From Halomonas sp. 'Soap Lake #6' (GTDB taxonomy: Bacteria > Pseudomonadota > Gammaproteobacteria > Pseudomonadales > Halomonadaceae): DNA of 64,000 nt. Below, piece by piece: positions 11,475-21,569 of this stretch. The stretch covers positions 2,852,001 through 2,916,000 of the forward strand of contig NZ_CP020469.1 of NCBI RefSeq assembly GCF_003031405.1, written 5' to 3'. A model generated the notes under the pieces. The model worked only from the letters and a program-made list of their open reading frames with translations, had not been told where the DNA came from and did not search any database. The position numbers and the translations under genes were made by a program. Each line of letters begins with the position of its first letter. The first letter of the stretch is position 1.

Positions 11475-11513
11475 TGATTCAGTCGTAACGCAGCCGATTG
11501 TGAAAACCCACCC

Positions 11514-11531
11514 TGTACATCATTCTGTACA
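11514..11531. promoter_or_regulatory. Two TGTACA boxes, YefM-type operator of the broken TA locus
   Basis: TGTACA occurs at 11514-11519 and 11526-11531, 12 bp apart, just before the yefM-like start. TGTACA is the known core recognised by YefM in E. coli. The same hexamer recurs upstream of the intact yefM copy. Confidence 0.6.
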
Positions 11532-11559
11532 CAAACAGCATCATGAACAGGCGTTTCCA

Positions 11560-11811
11560 ATGGATGCCATTAGCTACACTGCCGCTAGAACTAATTTAGC
11601 GAAAACAATGGAACAAGTCTGCGAAGACCATGCCCCCGTCATTATCACCCGGAGCAAATCGCAGTCCGTGGTCATGATCTCACTTGAAGATTACGACGCA
11701 TTACAAGAGACCGCCTATCTTTTGCGTGCGCCAAAAAATGCCCGTCGACTACTGGAATCCATAGTCTGGCTAGCTACTGGACTCGTCGTATCAACGAAGA
11801 GCAGAGGATGA
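11560..11811 (+). pseudogene. Truncated YefM/Phd-family antitoxin (broken TA locus)
   Basis: The first 70 or so residues (MDAISYTAARTNLAKTMEQV to ARRLLESI) form a normal YefM/Phd DNA-binding antitoxin domain. The frame then leaves the family and ends in an unrelated tail. Directly after the break, the next frame encodes the last 30 or so residues of a YoeB toxin. This shows that a deletion removed the antitoxin's toxin-binding C-terminus and the first part of yoeB. An ATG at 11500 is also in frame, but 11560 matches the family start. The N-terminal domain may still bind the operator. Confidence 0.75.
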
Positions 11812-12892: not shown

Positions 12893-13159
12893 CTAATAGT
12901 GATAACGACACGAAATGATCGTAATCGCATTATTATCAACTGCGTAGACTAATCGATTCGTATCATCTATACGTCGCGACCAAAAACCAGCTAAGTTTTC
13001 CTTTAACGGCTCTGGTTTACCAATACCTTCAAAGGGTGAGCGTCTAACGTCGTTTATAAGCTTGTTTATTCGTTTAAGCGTTTTTTTGTCCTGGGTTTGC
13101 CAATATAGGTAATCGCTCCAGGATTCGTCAGTCCATGACAGTAAACGACTACTCATCAA
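12893..13159 (-). CDS. yoeB: YoeB-family mRNA interferase toxin
   Basis: This 88-residue RelE-superfamily toxin contains the family landmarks LYWQTQDKKTLKRINKLI, PFEGIGKPEPLK and FWSRRIDDTNRLVYAV, and ends in CRYHY, which carries the catalytic His and Tyr. YoeB cleaves mRNA in the ribosome and is neutralised by YefM. Its start overlaps the last codons of the antitoxin gene, so the two are translationally coupled. ATG ATG at 13154-13159 offers two equivalent starts. Confidence 0.92.
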   Translation of the reverse strand: MMSSRLLSWTDESWSDYLYWQTQDKKTLKRINKLINDVRRSPFEGIGKPEPLKENLAGFWSRRIDDTNRLVYAVDNNAITIISCRYHY

Positions 13160-13403
13160 TCAAGTCTCTGCGGGTTACCTTACCTGCTTTGAATTGTTCA
13201 ATTGAGCGATTCAAATGCTCAGCATTCGCCGGTGAGCGCAGTAAGTGCACCGTTTCCATCAGGCTGTTGTAGTAGTCTAGCGACATAACAACAGCATCTT
13301 CCGAATCACGGCGAGTAATCACCGCTGTATCTGCGTCATTAACAACGGAATCTAATACCGCTTTCAAACTATTTCTTGCTTCTGTAAAAGACACAATTTT
13401 CAT
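13149..13403 (-). CDS. yefM: YefM-family antitoxin
   Basis: This 84-residue Phd/YefM protein runs from MKIVSFTEARNSLKAVLDSV through TRRDSEDAVVMSLDYYNSLMET to the toxin-binding tail NAEHLNRSIEQFKAGK. It neutralises YoeB and represses its own operon. It is full length, in contrast to the truncated copy at 11560. GGAGG lies before the ATG, and TGTACA boxes lie in the promoter region. Confidence 0.92.
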   Translation of the reverse strand: MKIVSFTEARNSLKAVLDSVVNDADTAVITRRDSEDAVVMSLDYYNSLMETVHLLRSPANAEHLNRSIEQFKAGKVTRRDLIDE

Positions 13404-15191: not shown

Positions 15192-16058
15192 TCACGCCAA
15201 CCCCACACAAACCAACTCCCCACCAAACCACTGCTGTTTTAACCCACGCTGTTTTTCCAGTAGCACTAAGTACGGGCGTAGTGGATGGTGGTCCGGTAGC
15301 GTGACATGGAGTTGGCGCAAACGGCGCTGGAAAGGGAGCTGTTCGGCGGGCATGTGTAATGGTGAAACGTGCTGGGTTAGCCACTCTATTTCAGGTAGCA
15401 GCAGATGTGTCGCCCCGCTATCCAGTGCTAGGGTCACGCCTTTGGGGTCAAAATCACCTGCGTAAAGGTGTGGTCGATTGGTTTTTCGCCAAGCCTTTTC
15501 CAGCTGCGCAAAGCCGCCACCATAGTGGCTGTCGCCACGGTAAACCACCAGCGGGTTGGCGTAACCGCTCAGTGCATCTATCTCTGGTGAAAACACATAG
15601 AAGCTGTCCAAGTTTTCTACCTGGACTAATGCCCCAAACGCGGCCAGCTTTAAGCTGGTTATATCAACGTCTCGAATGCTACGCGGCTCTGGCGCAAGCC
15701 ATGTGGAGGGTTGTTGCGGAAGATTGATCAACAGCCGCTTTGCACGGGGGCCCTCACGAATGCTTTTATCCTCCTCCAGCCCCTCTATTGCTTGGGCGGC
15801 GCTACTTAAACCGCTTAGCGAGTGCCCAAGCGGTGCCAAACGGTCGCTTTCCAACATGCTATTGATTTGCGCCAATAGGTTGGCGTCAAAGCGCAGCGTT
15901 TGGTTGGAAATCCACATGGTCAGATCGATATCCTTCTGGTGGCACCAAGCCACTACATCTTCTACCCACTTACTGCGCGGCTTTTCTACCAAGGACTGGC
16001 GGTTAAGCTCTCGTACAACACCATTAAGCCCGGCTCGGGCACGACCTGATAACGTCAT
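15192..16058 (-). CDS. Toprim/DUF2220-type nuclease subunit, JetD/MksG-like
   Basis: This 288-residue protein is the last gene of a four-gene SMC operon. Its C-terminal half carries a Toprim-like metal site: E148 in QVENLDSFYVF and D202/D204 in YAGDFDPKG, preceded by VVYRGDSHYGGGF. The same arrangement is seen in JetD of Wadjet and MksG, related to the Spo11/TopoVI A Toprim fold. These proteins cut DNA handed to them by the SMC motor. It is shorter than usual JetD. The start overlaps the end of the kleisin-like gene by 4 bp. Assignment rests on motifs and operon position. Confidence 0.72.
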   Translation of the reverse strand: MTLSGRARAGLNGVVRELNRQSLVEKPRSKWVEDVVAWCHQKDIDLTMWISNQTLRFDANLLAQINSMLESDRLAPLGHSLSGLSSAAQAIEGLEEDKSIREGPRAKRLLINLPQQPSTWLAPEPRSIRDVDITSLKLAAFGALVQVENLDSFYVFSPEIDALSGYANPLVVYRGDSHYGGGFAQLEKAWRKTNRPHLYAGDFDPKGVTLALDSGATHLLLPEIEWLTQHVSPLHMPAEQLPFQRRLRQLHVTLPDHHPLRPYLVLLEKQRGLKQQWFGGELVCVGLA

Positions 16059-17284
16059 ACCGCCACCGCCAGCGCTACGTCGTGAATTAGCCGCAGATCA
16101 TTGAAGGCGCTGGCTTTTGTTTCCTGTTGATGCAGCTGGAACGCCTGCTGCTCTCTGCGCGGCAGGCCTTGGTACTCGGCAATCACCTGAAACAGCCAAA
16201 TCTCTCCTGGCCACTCCAAGTGGCTATCCTTCAGGTAGGCCAGCGCGCTAACCGGCTCGGCTTGGGGCTGATCCAACACCGCGAGGTAGAAACTCTCGAC
16301 ATCTAGCTTAAGTGCTTGTTGGCGGGCAGCAGCGAGATTGTCTTCCGGCGTGAGTGTAGGCACTGCCGACTCAACCGTTTGCGCTGCGTGGCGCGGAATC
16401 GGTAACTCATGTAGTAACTCTGCCAATACTCGGCTTTCCAGCACTCGATCTAGTGCCGGGGATGCCGCTGCGCTTAATGGCGCTGCGTGGTTGAACAAGT
16501 TTGGCACCTCGCTGCGCTTGGCATAGTTGCCGGGCACAAAGCCTGGGTGTTCACGCATAAATGCCACCATGCCACTGATCAAACGGCTGCGCGCTTGCTG
16601 CTTGCGAAAACGCGCCATAAGTTCAATCAGCCGCCTCTGAACTTCCCTCAGGCTGGTGTAGTGGTGGCTTAATCGCTGCTGTAACTGGCTGATGAGTAGT
16701 TTACGCAGGCTGCCATCACTACCCACCAGCTCAATGAGCTCGTCAAAGTCGATTAGCGCCAAGCCATCCAGTAGCCGAACAATCTGCTTTTGGGCGCGGT
16801 CGTTTTCGCGGATTTTATCGTTCAGCTGGCTGACAAAGCCAAAGTCGCTATTCAACCGCTGCCAGAGGCTATCGATGGCATCAGCAAAACGGCCATTCAG
16901 GTCATCAACTTCCTGGCGCAGGCGCAACAGTTGCTGTTCCTGTCGCCAGTGCTCACCACAGCTGCGGGCTTCCCGGTAACTATCTACTAACGAGCGCACC
17001 AGCTCCAGGGTTTCCGCCACGTCAGCGTTCACATGGCGGCGAGTTTCATCGGCCAACATCTCAGCGATGAGTTCTCGCACCTTGGGCGAAAGCTTCACCC
17101 CACTCTGCTCGTCAGGCCGCCATAGCACCCGAGCGGCTAGCAACTTACGTAGCGCGCCATCGCTTAAACCTTCTAAGGGTACGTCGTCTCGGGTGTAACC
17201 CTGCATCAGTCGTTCGGCATGCTTGCCCAACAGCGCCAGCCGTTCAGCACCGGTTTTCAGCAGGCGGCTTTCCAGCTCGTTCAC
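16055..17284 (-). CDS. Kleisin-like subunit of an MksBEF/Wadjet-type SMC complex (MksF/JetA-like)
   Basis: This 409-residue, largely helical protein lies between the MksE-like and Toprim genes, with 4-bp overlaps on both sides. The N-terminal part is helical, with long heptad-like stretches around 95-250 (for example LRLRQEVDDLNGRFADAID). The C-terminal part (LDVESFYLAVLDQ, LEWPGEIWLFQVIAEY) looks like a small folded domain, as expected for a kleisin that bridges the SMC heads. Relatives are often mislabelled phosphoenolpyruvate carboxylase, but no carboxylase motif is visible. The kleisin role is inferred from context. Confidence 0.65.
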   Translation of the reverse strand: MNELESRLLKTGAERLALLGKHAERLMQGYTRDDVPLEGLSDGALRKLLAARVLWRPDEQSGVKLSPKVRELIAEMLADETRRHVNADVAETLELVRSLVDSYREARSCGEHWRQEQQLLRLRQEVDDLNGRFADAIDSLWQRLNSDFGFVSQLNDKIRENDRAQKQIVRLLDGLALIDFDELIELVGSDGSLRKLLISQLQQRLSHHYTSLREVQRRLIELMARFRKQQARSRLISGMVAFMREHPGFVPGNYAKRSEVPNLFNHAAPLSAAASPALDRVLESRVLAELLHELPIPRHAAQTVESAVPTLTPEDNLAAARQQALKLDVESFYLAVLDQPQAEPVSALAYLKDSHLEWPGEIWLFQVIAEYQGLPRREQQAFQLHQQETKASAFNDLRLIHDVALAVAV

Positions 17285-17910
17285 AGCAACGCCTCCTGGG
17301 TGCCCTCTTCGCGCTCCGCATCAATCGGCAGATTTTCCTCATCGCGGATAAAGCGCACCACTTCGATCAAGTAGTCGATTTTACCAGTGACTACAAATAC
17401 CTGGCGTTCGGTATGAGGCTGAAGCAAGTAACCATGCTCTTTTAAACGCTTAAACAGCTGCTTGACCTGAGCATCTAGTTGATCACTTTGAGAGCCAAAG
17501 AAGCTATCCGTTGCCAGCCGCTCCAAACGCTCGCGCAGGCTTTGGTTATCTTCACACTTAGCGCTGAACTCGGCGGGTTTGAGCACATCGCCAGGGGCCG
17601 CTAAGGTATCGCGACCTAACGCTTCCTGAACCAGTTGCAGCCACTCCAGCAGCGGCAACAGGCTGTTGACTGTCTCACCCAACTGGCGTGAAAGCTGGTC
17701 TCGGGCAGCTTCGTTAAGCTGCCGCCAAGCCAAGAAATAAACGCTACCTTCATCATTACTGGCCAGCCGGCGGTTGAGCGGGCGCAGGTAGCTATCGATG
17801 GCTTCACGCGTCTCTTCATTTGTTAAATGGCGGAAGGCATTTTCATCGCTTACGGCGCAGATAAACTCTCCTGCCAGCAGGCGTTCCAGTAGCGGGCCAT
17901 GTTCAATCAT
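17281..17910 (-). CDS. MksE/JetB-like (kite) subunit of the SMC complex
   Basis: This 209-residue protein has an N-terminal segment LLERLLAGEFICAVSDENAFRHL and a C-terminal winged-helix-like part (LFKRLKEHGYLLQPHTERQVFVVTG). These fit the small winged-helix subunits (MksE, DUF4194/JetB) that bind the kleisin. It starts inside the stop of the SMC gene (ATGA overlap) and ends inside the start of the kleisin-like gene. The four proteins are therefore probably made in fixed ratio. Confidence 0.68.
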   Translation of the reverse strand: MIEHGPLLERLLAGEFICAVSDENAFRHLTNEETREAIDSYLRPLNRRLASNDEGSVYFLAWRQLNEAARDQLSRQLGETVNSLLPLLEWLQLVQEALGRDTLAAPGDVLKPAEFSAKCEDNQSLRERLERLATDSFFGSQSDQLDAQVKQLFKRLKEHGYLLQPHTERQVFVVTGKIDYLIEVVRFIRDEENLPIDAEREEGTQEALL

Positions 17911-20900
17911 GCGCTTACCTCCTGCTGACGCTCTTTGATCCGCTGCGCGATGGGGCTAAGGCGTGGCTCAATACGTTTTAGCTGGCGCTGGTTGTTGCTT
18001 GCACCCCGCTCAATCAGATAGCGGTTGGCGAATAATAGCAATACGTCCGACTCTGGATTGGGGAAGGCCCCGACAATATGAATGCGGTTACTATCACAGG
18101 CGTCGAACAACTTTTCGACGTTGTGGTAGGCCAATGTACCGATTTCATCGATAGGCCAGTGGATAGCGATTTGTGCATCGCCACGCAACAGCCGTGTAAA
18201 CGCCAGCAGAAACTTACACAGAATCAGGTAGGCCATACCGTGGCTGGAGGACTCCAGCAATTGGCGGTCATTCTTGATCACCAAATCCGTGCCGCCTTCG
18301 TTTAAGTGCAGTTCCAACCGCAGCAGGCTTTCAAAGCTGTACTGTTGGTCACTGCGCAGCAAATCGACAACATCCGCCAGGGCGTTGAGATAATCATCGC
18401 TGGGCAGTGCCTGTCCGGATTCCCGCCACGCTTTATAACGCTGAGCGAACAGTTTCAGCGGCTCCCAGAACCCTAGCTCGTCGATGGTGGACTGAATGCG
18501 TACTTCCGCCTTGCTGATGCCCTCTAATCGTAGGTCGTCGGCCACCTCATCGGAAAGTCGACGGCTCTGGGCACTAATGCGCCGATTAAGATCGCGGAAA
18601 ACAATAAAGAACTTATCCAGGTCATCGCTTAAATTGCGTCCTTCCTGAATCAGTTGCTGCTGTTGATCTTCTAGCAGTTTTAGCATGCCACGTAGCAGTG
18701 GCAGTAGCAGCCGAGGGCTATCATTTGGCAGCTTTTCACGCTCGCTTTGCAGTGCATCAGCAAAGCCGCTACTGGCATCTTTAATCAGCTGGCTTTCCAC
18801 CTCCAGGCAGCCCCGTCGCAGCTGTTCTAGCTGCTGATGACGGCTCGCCAACGCCTGACGGGCACGCTCGATACGTTCATCCATATCACCAACAGTGGCT
18901 TCTGCAGGAGCACTTTCTGCCACCAGCTCCAGGCTTTCCAGTTGTGTCAGTAGTGGTGTGAGCGCCTCCAGGCTACCGTGGGCATGGCTGCGCTGAGTTT
19001 TTAACTCATTAACTGCGCGTTGATACGCCTCCCTTGCAGCGTGAAAGTCATTTTTCAAACGGGCTTTGTCACGCTTGAGTTGTTGATCCTGCTGCTCCAG
19101 CTCTGCTTCCTGGGCGACTAGCTGCGGCTTATGCTGCCCCCACTCCACACGCATAAAGCGTTGGTACTCGGTGAGTTCTTCCTGGCGAGCAGCTGTTTTA
19201 CGGATGCGTTCACTCTGCTGCTCTAAACGCGTTTTGGTGGATTTTAACTGCGCGGGGTCAACGCCCTGCTCGGCAAGCTCCTGACTAAAGGCTGCTTCTA
19301 GTTCGCTACGCTGGCGTTGGTGTTCAGCATTGGCATCGTTGAGCTGCTGCTTATACTGGCGCAGCTGCGCATCCAGGCTATCCAGCTGGCTTTGGGCGTC
19401 GGCTTTTAGCTCTAGCAGTTGACCTTGATGGGTCTCGGCAAGAGCAGCAAGCGCCTGCTGTTTTTCTGCACGTAGTTCGGCTTGTGCCTGCTCCTGGCGA
19501 GCCAACGCGGCTTGGTGATCCGCCCGCCGTTGCTGCTGGCGTTTGGCATGGCGCTCATGCTGCTGGCGGCGAGCCTCAAGGGCATACTCCACTTCCTGTT
19601 CGGCGCGTTGATGGGCCATGCGCGCCTGATCTTGAGTCTCATCAGCCTGCTGCACCCGCTCGTTATGCTGCTTCAGGGCTTTTTCTGCGGCAAGGCACTC
19701 AGACTGGGCACGCTGCTTGGCACTGTCGGCATCTTCAATGGCGGCTAAGAGGCTGGCTTCGTCTTGGGCGTAATCAGGCAGGGCAATCGCGCTTAGGTCC
19801 AACGCCAGGCCGAATAGGTCCTCGCTTGCCCCTGCGGCTAACTGAGGGGCGAGGTCTCGCCGCTCAAGCAGCTCTGGTGCGATCACCTTGCCAAGTTGCT
19901 GCTCCCAACCAGGACGGTGGTAGCGTAGGAAATGACGCAGACTGCCCTGTTCGGGATCACGTTGCTGATAAAGTGCAAAACAGTGCTGCTCAGCGCGCTC
20001 ACGCTGCTGACGACACTGCACCAACTGCTGCTCGGCGGACGCCCGCTCCCGTTTGTGGCTTTCAAGCTCACGGCGCAGTGCTTCGAGGGTTGCAGCCGCC
20101 GCGCTGCGTTCCTGCTGCGACTGATCTAATCGCGCCTGGGCCAGCTCAGCCTCTTGGAGCTCTTCAGCAGTTTGGCTGGGCATGGCCAGTTGCGCTTTCA
20201 GCTCGGCCAGTTGCTCTACGCCCAGCTCTAACTGAGCCTGATACTCCCCCTCAAGGCGTTGGCGTTCCTGCTGATAGCGCTCATTGTGCTGCTGCTCGAC
20301 CTGCCACTGCTGCTCACGGCGCTCGGCTTTTTCCTCGGTCAGAGCATCAATCAGCTCCTGCGTTTCCTGGGTTTGCCGGGCTAACACTTCCGAAAGCTCG
20401 CGTAGCCTGCCATCCAGACGTGCCTGGCTCTCTTTCACCGCTTCCTGCATTACTTGCAGGTGCTGCTGGAGCTGGTCACGCTGCTCACGCCACTGAGGCA
20501 GCGCGTTGATATCCCTCTCCAAGCCGGGCATGTCAGCATCGGCGTAGTGCTCAAACTGCGTTTGCAGGTCGTTCAGGCGGCGCTGAGTGTGCTGTAGGTC
20601 ACTCGTCAATTCACTATGGCGATCATTCAAAGCATCCCGCTGCCGGGTGTAATCGCTCTCACGCTGCTGGAACTCGCGCTGAAGACGATTCAACTCACTA
20701 TCTAGATCCGCGATGCGCTGCTCGACCTTCTGGTGGTCGGCGCTTAACTGCGGCTTGAGCTGCCAGAGAGTGGTCTCAAGCTGAGCCAGCTCGCGGTCGA
20801 TGCCGCCAAGTTTGGTTAGAGATACCTGTAGCGGCTCCAGGCGCATCGACTGACGCATCTGGGCAATCCACTCCCGCGCTTTGGCACTACGAATTCGCGT

Positions 20901-21569
20901 AACGGGTAGCTCGACGCCATCTTCTTCAAAAATCGCCGCTAGCATAGTTTTGAGGGTGTCCATCTTGCCCTCTTTGGCATGCACAGCGGAGACAAGCTTT
21001 TCGATATGACGAATACGCCGCTCGGGGTTTACTAAGCTAAATTGCGCTGCAATCTGGCGCAGTTTTAGGCCATCACGGCTATTACCATGGAGCTGGGTAA
21101 AGTCGTTTTGGATCACCGAACGAAACTCTGAAGTGGCACCCAGCTTGGATGAAACGGGCACCCCGCTTCGGCGCAGCCCGCTAGACCACTGTGCGTACTC
21201 CAATGCCAGAGGGCCTTGCTCGGTCTCGATCAGATAATCTTCTGGCCGGTAAGGTGCGCCAACAAACCGATACTCCACACCACCTTCTGCTTTGCGCGTT
21301 AGCACGGCTTGGCAGATGTTGCCCGCCTCGCGACGATATTCGTATATCAGGTAACTATTGCGTGTCGGCAAATAGAACGCATCAAACTTCATGCGGGTTT
21401 TTGGAACTACTTTATTAGGCAGTTCGCCATAAAACACTGGCACCAAGCGTTGGAGCGTGGTTTTTCCCGAGGCGTTGGTGCCACAAATATTGGTGTGGCC
21501 ATCCACACTTAACTCGACCACTCCCGTTAAGTGGCCGTGAATCATAACGATGCGTAGCAGATGCGCCAT
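17907..21569 (-). CDS. SMC-like ATPase (MksB/JetC-like, DUF3584 type)
   Basis: This 1220-residue protein is an SMC/Rad50-type ATPase. The Walker A motif is GTNASGKTT at 30-38. A very long Gln/Glu/Arg/Ala-rich coiled coil runs from about 260 to 1000 with a less regular hinge region around 560-640. The ABC signature region is SSSHGMAYLIL near 1107, and Walker B is AIHWPIDEIGTL with D1141-E1142. Such proteins extrude DNA loops. With kleisin, kite and Toprim partners they form MksBEFG/Wadjet complexes that cleave small circular DNA. It is first in the operon, and AAGGA precedes its ATG. Confidence 0.88.
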   Translation of the reverse strand: MAHLLRIVMIHGHLTGVVELSVDGHTNICGTNASGKTTLQRLVPVFYGELPNKVVPKTRMKFDAFYLPTRNSYLIYEYRREAGNICQAVLTRKAEGGVEYRFVGAPYRPEDYLIETEQGPLALEYAQWSSGLRRSGVPVSSKLGATSEFRSVIQNDFTQLHGNSRDGLKLRQIAAQFSLVNPERRIRHIEKLVSAVHAKEGKMDTLKTMLAAIFEEDGVELPVTRIRSAKAREWIAQMRQSMRLEPLQVSLTKLGGIDRELAQLETTLWQLKPQLSADHQKVEQRIADLDSELNRLQREFQQRESDYTRQRDALNDRHSELTSDLQHTQRRLNDLQTQFEHYADADMPGLERDINALPQWREQRDQLQQHLQVMQEAVKESQARLDGRLRELSEVLARQTQETQELIDALTEEKAERREQQWQVEQQHNERYQQERQRLEGEYQAQLELGVEQLAELKAQLAMPSQTAEELQEAELAQARLDQSQQERSAAAATLEALRRELESHKRERASAEQQLVQCRQQRERAEQHCFALYQQRDPEQGSLRHFLRYHRPGWEQQLGKVIAPELLERRDLAPQLAAGASEDLFGLALDLSAIALPDYAQDEASLLAAIEDADSAKQRAQSECLAAEKALKQHNERVQQADETQDQARMAHQRAEQEVEYALEARRQQHERHAKRQQQRRADHQAALARQEQAQAELRAEKQQALAALAETHQGQLLELKADAQSQLDSLDAQLRQYKQQLNDANAEHQRQRSELEAAFSQELAEQGVDPAQLKSTKTRLEQQSERIRKTAARQEELTEYQRFMRVEWGQHKPQLVAQEAELEQQDQQLKRDKARLKNDFHAAREAYQRAVNELKTQRSHAHGSLEALTPLLTQLESLELVAESAPAEATVGDMDERIERARQALASRHQQLEQLRRGCLEVESQLIKDASSGFADALQSEREKLPNDSPRLLLPLLRGMLKLLEDQQQQLIQEGRNLSDDLDKFFIVFRDLNRRISAQSRRLSDEVADDLRLEGISKAEVRIQSTIDELGFWEPLKLFAQRYKAWRESGQALPSDDYLNALADVVDLLRSDQQYSFESLLRLELHLNEGGTDLVIKNDRQLLESSSHGMAYLILCKFLLAFTRLLRGDAQIAIHWPIDEIGTLAYHNVEKLFDACDSNRIHIVGAFPNPESDVLLLFANRYLIERGASNNQRQLKRIEPRLSPIAQRIKERQQEVSA

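What the first reader, a model, noticed from the sequence alone, without database searches (positions are those of the whole stretch)
15192..21569. Four-gene SMC-Toprim operon in unusual order (MksBEFG/Wadjet-like)
Four genes overlap by 4 bp each: SMC ATPase (Walker A GTNASGKTT, Walker B with DE), MksE-like, kleisin-like, then a protein with a Toprim Glu (E148) and DFD (D202/D204). These parts match MksBEFG and Wadjet, which destroy or exclude small circular DNA. In canonical jetABCD the order is kleisin, kite, SMC, Toprim; here the SMC gene is first. The SMC type (DUF3584-like) and the short Toprim protein (288 aa) suggest a separate branch. The kleisin-like protein is commonly misnamed. It may be an under-described plasmid-exclusion or chromosome-organising system.
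Basis: partly seen in the sequence, partly recalled or inferred. Interest (0 to 1): 0.78.

Follow-up and report, generated by a model that had tools for sequence, protein, structure and literature searches.

The report
Nuclease-armed DNA-loop motor operon
Salt-loving bacteria carry a four-gene operon that looks like a DNA-loop motor with its own DNA-cutting subunit, built like known anti-plasmid systems but from a separate branch, and several relatives have dropped the cutter while keeping the motor, so the step from defence weapon to chromosome organiser may be visible.

Summary
In detail: four genes with 4-bp overlaps, SMC (1220 aa), MksE-like kite (209), kleisin-like (409), Toprim (288), in a Vreelandella/Halomonas chromosome that also has Smc and ScpA. 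The Toprim model has the JetD/MksG/topoisomerase VI-A fold, with E148, D202 and D204 aligned to JetD's acidic residues. The kleisin model most resembles MukF, by coverage rather than by score. PADLOC's Wadjet models miss the operon but find all four subunits of two canonical Wadjets at 9e-39 or better. SMCs of 11 SMC-first loci form one clade apart from JetC and MukB. It is an unlisted branch of the SMC-Toprim (Wadjet/MksBEFG) kind. New here: in 10 of 76 readable named loci the Toprim is lost or broken while the other three genes are full length, with at least six changes on the tree. Eleven such genomes, six among those 10 loci, hold no other DUF7281 or JetD_C gene at E 0.001. One nuclease-less pair keeps dN/dS of 0.03-0.05. 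Most likely a plasmid-cutting loop extruder whose core also has a nuclease-independent job. No activity was tested.

The parts
17907..21569 (-). SMC ATPase (MksB/JetC counterpart), 1220 aa, first gene of the operon
   Evidence: DUF3584 8e-229; head tree places it in a clade of 11 SMCs of SMC-first loci, support 100/99
21459..21482 (-). Walker A GTNASGKT (residues 30-37)
   Evidence: place checked; G30, N32, G35, K36 invariant in A6
18231..18254 (-). ABC signature region ESSSHGMA (residues 1106-1113), where the genome's canonical Smc has SGGE and canonical JetCs have SGGEK or similar
   Evidence: alignment of heads; place checked
18144..18149 (-). Walker B acidic pair D1141-E1142
17281..17910 (-). 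kite subunit, MksE-like, 209 aa
   Evidence: Pfam MksE 6.3e-8, above gathering cut-off; no structure predicted
16055..17284 (-). kleisin-like subunit, predicted MukF-like layout, 409 aa
17090..17248 (-). predicted N-terminal winged-helix region of the kleisin (residues 13-65)
   Evidence: model; boundaries approximate
16058..16348 (-). predicted C-terminal winged-helix region of the kleisin (residues 313-409), after a low-confidence linker 253-312
   Evidence: model; boundaries approximate
15192..16058 (-). Toprim nuclease (MksG/JetD counterpart), DUF7281, 288 aa
15615..15617 (-). Toprim Glu, E148
   Evidence: invariant; aligned to E271 of a canonical JetD; place checked
15447..15455 (-). Toprim DFD, D202 and D204
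   Evidence: invariant; aligned to D313 and D315 of a canonical JetD; place checked

Best explanation
The operon encodes a MukBEF-like SMC motor (SMC, MksE kite, MukF-like kleisin) armed with a short JetD/MksG-type Toprim nuclease. By analogy with Wadjet, two SMC motors joined through the kleisin extrude small circular DNA to completion, and this releases the Toprim dimer to cut it through E148, D202 and D204. In addition the SMC core has a nuclease-independent role, most likely chromosome organisation as for MksBEF of Pseudomonas aeruginosa. The Toprim is therefore a detachable, fast-evolving effector that lineages lose repeatedly while keeping the core. Shown here: the genes, the Toprim fold (predicted), the active-site residues, the conserved order, repeated absence of the Toprim with a full-length core, and low dN/dS of the core without the nuclease. 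Less sure: the kleisin fold. Inferred: dimer-of-dimers, loop extrusion, plasmid cleavage, and chromosome organisation by the core.
For: Genes and active site. Folds. The order SMC-kite-kleisin-Toprim occurs in gammaproteobacterial loci of other families L017-L021 and L179, L181, L182, L206, L209 (the kleisin of L206 by position only). Named loci (80 best of at least 545 relatives): 63 with intact Toprim, 13 lost or broken, 4 cut by contig ends (L084, left out by my distance rule, was checked intact). Of 64 Toprim frames of 200 aa or more whose residues were read, 62 keep E, N, Y, G, D, D, G; the two others (L087, L144) are truncated. Of the 13, 10 have full-length SMC, kite and kleisin frames; 8 changes on the tree, at least 6 forced by starred branches. 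Eleven kleisin-positive, Toprim-negative genomes have all three core genes full length and no hit to DUF7281, JetD_C (E 0.001) or the A3 Toprim profile (E 0.01). Positive controls rang (G308, G365; G605); for JetD_C only the built-in control C. glutamicum rang. A more distant genome, G007, has the core without a Toprim. Chromohalobacter pair L100-L101, with the Toprim slot taken by the same globin-like gene: SMC omega 0.054, kite 0.030, kleisin 0.033, against five neighbours 0.026-0.086 and the slot gene 0.110. Where the Toprim is present its omega is 0.16-0.34 in 20 of 21 pairs (0.90 in one near-identical pair), against 0.01-0.16 for core genes. Smc and ScpA are encoded elsewhere in the genome.
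Against: No activity was tested. dN/dS is pairwise Nei-Gojobori, not a formal test, and recombination could keep alleles intact: the gene filling the Toprim slot in L100-L101 has dS 0.174 against 0.356 for SMC, so the loss may be younger than the split in SMC; L106 and L109 are much closer in kite and kleisin than in SMC; L093 shares its deletion with L094 though it is nearer to L096, which has the Toprim. Tree changes do not separate loss from gain; of the 10, only L087, L093, L094 and L133 show remnants. The kleisin fold match is tied in Z with unrelated helical proteins, and by sequence the kleisin does not match JetA (hhalign P 0.45) and the kite hardly matches JetB (P 0.022). The first 100 or so residues of the Toprim protein have no confirmed counterpart of the JetD CAP domain. 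A defence-gene slot next to the operon in Vreelandella (hand-picked genes) fits a purely defensive role too.
Confidence: 0.55

Rival explanations
1. Plain anti-plasmid defence of the Wadjet kind and nothing else. Copies without the Toprim are recent wrecks, or are kept intact for a while by recombination with complete copies.
For: Same four kinds of part as Wadjet/MksBEFG; active site invariant. Some whole operons are broken (L144, L146, L147). A slot beside the operon in Vreelandella holds known defence genes. Patchy presence: kleisin match in 57 of 151 family genomes.
Confidence: 0.25
2. A chromosome condensin of the MksBEF kind in which the Toprim protein serves chromosome metabolism, for example decatenation or repair, and plasmids are not the target.
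For: Kleisin model nearest MukF by coverage; high presence in the window's own genus (kleisin match in 21 of 25 genomes listed, two of them weak or partial); Toprim model nearest Top6A.
Against: The Toprim is lost repeatedly and evolves faster than the core, unusual for a chromosome-maintenance subunit; Smc and ScpA are present anyway. [quoted passage not shown]
Confidence: 0.13
3. The core alone excludes extrachromosomal DNA by compaction or silencing, as described for Smc5/6, and the Toprim is an optional second weapon.
For: Core retained without the nuclease.
Against: No direct evidence here; all four Wadjet subunits were needed to suppress plasmid transformation in B. subtilis (PMC10586767, section 4).
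Confidence: 0.07

Closest known systems
MksBEFG of Corynebacterium glutamicum / Wadjet (JetABCD)
   Different: Order SMC-kite-kleisin-Toprim instead of kleisin-kite-SMC-Toprim (PMC10123090, passages); Toprim protein of 288 aa against 399-427 in the five canonical JetDs aligned here; PADLOC models miss it; SMC clade separate; signature SSSHG instead of SGGE(K)
MukBEF of Escherichia coli
   Same: Kleisin model nearest MukF by coverage; kite and SMC counterparts
   Different: mukF-mukE-mukB order and no Toprim gene annotated beside them in K-12; SMC of 1220 aa against 1486; AU test against one clade with MukB, p 0.020, with long branches
MksBEF condensin of Pseudomonas aeruginosa
   Same: A core without the nuclease, like the Toprim-less loci found here
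   Different: Order mksFEB is recalled; chromosome role from PMC10586767 (section 4) and PMC7485682 (passages and the abstract start in a listing); not compared by sequence here
DUF7281 proteins beside short SMCs (917-924 aa), L024, L183-L185
   Same: DUF7281 Toprim match
   Different: Order kleisin-kite-SMC-Toprim in L024 and L183 (kleisin by position; kite of L024 by Pfam MksE); short SMC, L024, L183 and L185 in another clade

Membership tests
Wadjet (JetABCD) | Four subunits: SMC, kite, kleisin, Toprim | tested here: met
   SMC, kite and Toprim by Pfam and fold; the kleisin by position, predicted layout and coverage against MukF, the weakest of the four
Wadjet (JetABCD) | Gene order jetA-jetB-jetC-jetD | tested here: not met
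   order is SMC-kite-kleisin-Toprim; canonical loci L171 and L176 show jetABCD
Wadjet (JetABCD) | Match to curated type I-III models (PADLOC) | tested here: not met
   best: JetC1 2.3e-5 over 42 residues, JetD3 0.008, none for JetA or JetB; the two control loci score 9e-39 or better for each subunit. A distant relative's Toprim (L017) does reach JetD3 at 4e-6
Wadjet (JetABCD) | Toprim with JetD-type acidic triad | tested here: met
   hhalign P 1.3e-5, prob 80.7, E, D, D aligned; fold
Wadjet (JetABCD) | Restricts small circular DNA | not testable with these tools
   needs an experiment
MksBEF(G) | Kite of the MksE family | tested here: met
   PF21980 6.3e-8, above cut-off
MksBEF(G) | Operon order mksFEB(G) | tested here: not met
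   order B-E-F-G; mksFEBG stated as conserved in PMC10123090 (passages)
MksBEF(G) | Toprim subunit of the MksG fold | tested here: met
MukBEF | MukF-type kleisin | tested here: inconclusive
MukBEF | SMC of the MukB clade | tested here: not met
   tree and AU test p 0.020; long branches weaken this

The most novel reading that the evidence does not exclude
This SMC-first branch is the Wadjet-to-condensin transition caught in the act: one and the same SMC core is a plasmid-cutting machine in some species and, after repeated independent loss of the Toprim gene, a working chromosome-organising condensin in close relatives, with the Toprim as a plug-in weapon.
Probability: 0.35. Interest if true: 0.82.

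Novelty: new variant of a known kind. Interest (0 to 1): 0.62.

Why it matters
The review read here calls the origin of Wadjet and its relationship to other SMC complexes unresolved, and suggests that MukBEF and likely MksBEF arose from it (PMC10586767, section 4). Species of one family, some with and some without the nuclease on the same SMC core, make this testable by ordinary deletions and contact maps. The branch is also missing from the defence-gene library used here (PADLOC-DB of 2023), so annotation with those models would not see it. Halomonas is an industrial chassis (recalled), and a native plasmid-cutting system would limit its engineering.

Tried and rejected
Canonical Wadjet by models: rejected, with positive controls. 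JetA and JetB homology by profile comparison: kleisin no match, kite weak. Solved relatives by sequence: none for the Toprim alone; the Toprim profile gave only a poor hit to an ABC transporter; the SMC alone gave none, and the SMC profile one Smc coiled-coil fragment at 7.6e-4. NCBIfam: nothing over a cut-off. A Toprim moved elsewhere in the genome: not found in the 12 core-positive, Toprim-negative genomes searched (11; G007 only). Note that PF23947 missed the divergent Toprim of G605 (not among the matches), which the A3 profile found, and that the A1 profile finds short remnants in G329 and G376, so absence is only as good as these profiles. The Onishia pair L093-L094 as a clean post-loss comparison: rejected, because L093 is nearer to L096, which has the Toprim. 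MukF membership of the kleisin: left inconclusive. Absence from print: searches for DUF7281 (0 papers), DUF3584 (5 papers, none about SMC systems by title), Wadjet/MksBEFG/DUF3584 (104 papers, 40 listed), MksB and gene order (59 papers, 20 listed), type IV Wadjet (18), JetABCD (13), type II structures since 2024 (6), Halomonas with Wadjet or MksB and the like (41, 20 listed); subscription papers and preprints are mostly not held, so this is no proof.
Full report
What is there. The window lies at 2,852,001-2,916,000 of a 4.80-Mb single-contig genome. The named relatives of its proteins at the top of the lists are Vreelandella and Halomonas; the SMC is 98% identical in its best segment to that of V. 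nigrificans. On the minus strand four genes follow each other with 4-bp overlaps: SMC 17907-21569, kite 17281-17910, kleisin-like 16055-17284, Toprim 15192-16058. Pfam assigns DUF3584 (8e-229), MksE (6e-8) and DUF7281 (1.5e-11); the kleisin-like protein reaches no cut-off. The genome also has a canonical Smc and ScpA and no JetD_C match, so this is an additional SMC complex.

A separate branch. PADLOC gives no usable hit for any of the four proteins, while two canonical loci from other Gammaproteobacteria score 9e-39 or better for all four subunits. A more distant SMC-first Toprim (L017) does touch JetD3 at 4e-6. A tree of SMC heads puts 11 SMCs of SMC-first loci in one clade (100/99) apart from JetC of canonical Wadjets, short SMCs beside DUF7281, and MukB; several branches are long, so the deeper order is unsure. 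The signature motif reads SSSHG or a variant instead of SGGE(K). The order SMC-kite-kleisin-Toprim recurs in other families of the class. In draws of 321 genomes of the class, DUF7281 rings in 12 (10 over its cut-off) and DUF3584 passes its cut-off in 8. Seven of those 8 have a full-length SMC (the eighth, G652, is a fragment); of the seven, six (own genome, G515, G605, G626, G682, G733) have a Toprim next to the kleisin and one (G007) has none.

Loss of the nuclease. In the family, the kleisin profile matches 57 of 151 genomes (a few matches are partial) and the Toprim profile 50 of 151 (several are short remnants). Among the 80 best named loci, the Toprim is intact in 63, lost or broken in 13, and unreadable at contig ends in 4 (L084 checked). 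In 10 of the 13 the other three genes are full length: L087, L093, L094, L100, L101, L104, L106, L133, L141, L143. In L144, L146 and L147 the SMC is broken too, and in L148 the SMC is broken while the Toprim is intact; sequencing errors are possible in these four. The tree of the three core proteins (72 rows) needs 8 changes of Toprim state, at least 6 forced by well-supported branches; such changes could in principle include regains. Remnants or interruptions show real loss in L087, L093, L094 and L133. Eleven core-positive genomes of the family, six of them apparently the same assemblies as named loci, have full-length core genes and no hit to DUF7281, JetD_C or the A3 Toprim profile; controls rang, and for JetD_C only the built-in C. 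glutamicum control.

Is the bare core still under selection? In Chromohalobacter moromii and C. canadensis (L100, L101) the Toprim slot is filled by the same globin-like gene (the Pfam scan was of the L100 copy). Between them omega is 0.054 for SMC (54 nonsynonymous and 243 synonymous differences), 0.030 for the kite and 0.033 for the kleisin, against 0.026-0.086 for five neighbouring genes and 0.110 for the slot gene. Across the pairs compared, with and without the Toprim, core genes have omega 0.01-0.16, and the Toprim where present 0.16-0.34 in 20 of 21 pairs (0.90 in the near-identical pair L102-L105). Caveats: the slot gene has dS of only 0.174, recombination is visible in this genus (L106 and L109), and no formal relaxation test was run.

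Neighbourhood. In 27 of the 80 loci, nearly all Vreelandella or close Halomonas, the GntR regulator upstream is the same as in the window, while the stretch after the Toprim varies. Ten hand-picked cargo proteins at nine loci include DSR2, a type IIG restriction enzyme, a SIR2 protein, a retron with its Toprim part and Lamassu LmuB; seven of the nine loci have a PADLOC match better than 1e-40 and two only weak ones. The operon thus sits beside a slot for defence genes. This supports a defence role only by association, and the choice was not random.

Mechanism. By analogy with Wadjet (PMC10586767, section 4 read in full), two SMC motors joined by the kleisin would reel in a small circle until they meet, and the Toprim dimer would then cut. 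That a core without the nuclease persists suggests a second task; the same review says MksBEF of P. [quoted passage not shown] The loci found here are candidates for this step in living relatives. Papers: PMC10586767, outline and section 4; PMC10123090, PMC12287153, PMC7485682 and PMC4255302, passages only; all others search listings; the original Wadjet and MksBEF papers are recalled, not read.

Verdict. The feature is real and correctly read. It is a new variant of a known kind: an SMC-first, short-Toprim branch of the SMC-Toprim systems with a probably MukF-like kleisin. Its main interest is the repeated absence of the nuclease from an apparently constrained SMC core.

Noticed in passing
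downstream of the Toprim gene in Vreelandella and Halovibrio loci, e.g. L080:16542-20102, L081:16772-20419, L085:17716-19425, L099:17024-18619, L114:16884-18743: A variable slot right behind the Toprim gene carries different defence genes in different species (DSR2, type IIG RM, Lamassu, SIR2, retron I-C), hand-picked examples.
   Followed up: partly
L087:15539-22948 and L133:8433-13995: Toprim gene interrupted by several kilobases of other genes in two species: a 1324-aa protein with a weak PADLOC match in one, unassigned genes in the other, followed in both by a short-chain dehydrogenase-like gene and a small regulator-like gene (labels by eye).
   Followed up: partly
L024:3356-8876, L183:5770-11259, L184, L185: Another branch: DUF7281 Toprim with a short SMC of 917-924 aa; order kleisin-kite-SMC-Toprim in L024 and L183 (kleisin by position). 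The L024 SMC, Toprim and kleisin-position protein had only weak PADLOC matches.
   Followed up: partly
L025:3479-9349: A further arrangement, Toprim-SMC(998 aa)-472 aa-204 aa, next to a helicase-like and an OLD-like gene that look like Gabija (labels by eye and recall, not scanned).
   Followed up: no
L100:15587-16009 and L101:15587-16009: A bacterial globin gene sits exactly in the former Toprim slot, overlapping the kleisin gene by 4 bp as the Toprim gene does in L109.
   Followed up: partly
window 12893-13403: A pair of small genes that looks like a YoeB-YefM toxin-antitoxin pair near the operon, with another YefM-like frame at 11500-11811 (by eye).
   Followed up: no
alignment A1, rows P0096 and P0098 against the window and P0099: Toprim proteins of Halomonas look mosaic: N-terminal and C-terminal halves follow different groups, suggesting recombination within the gene (by eye).
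   Followed up: no
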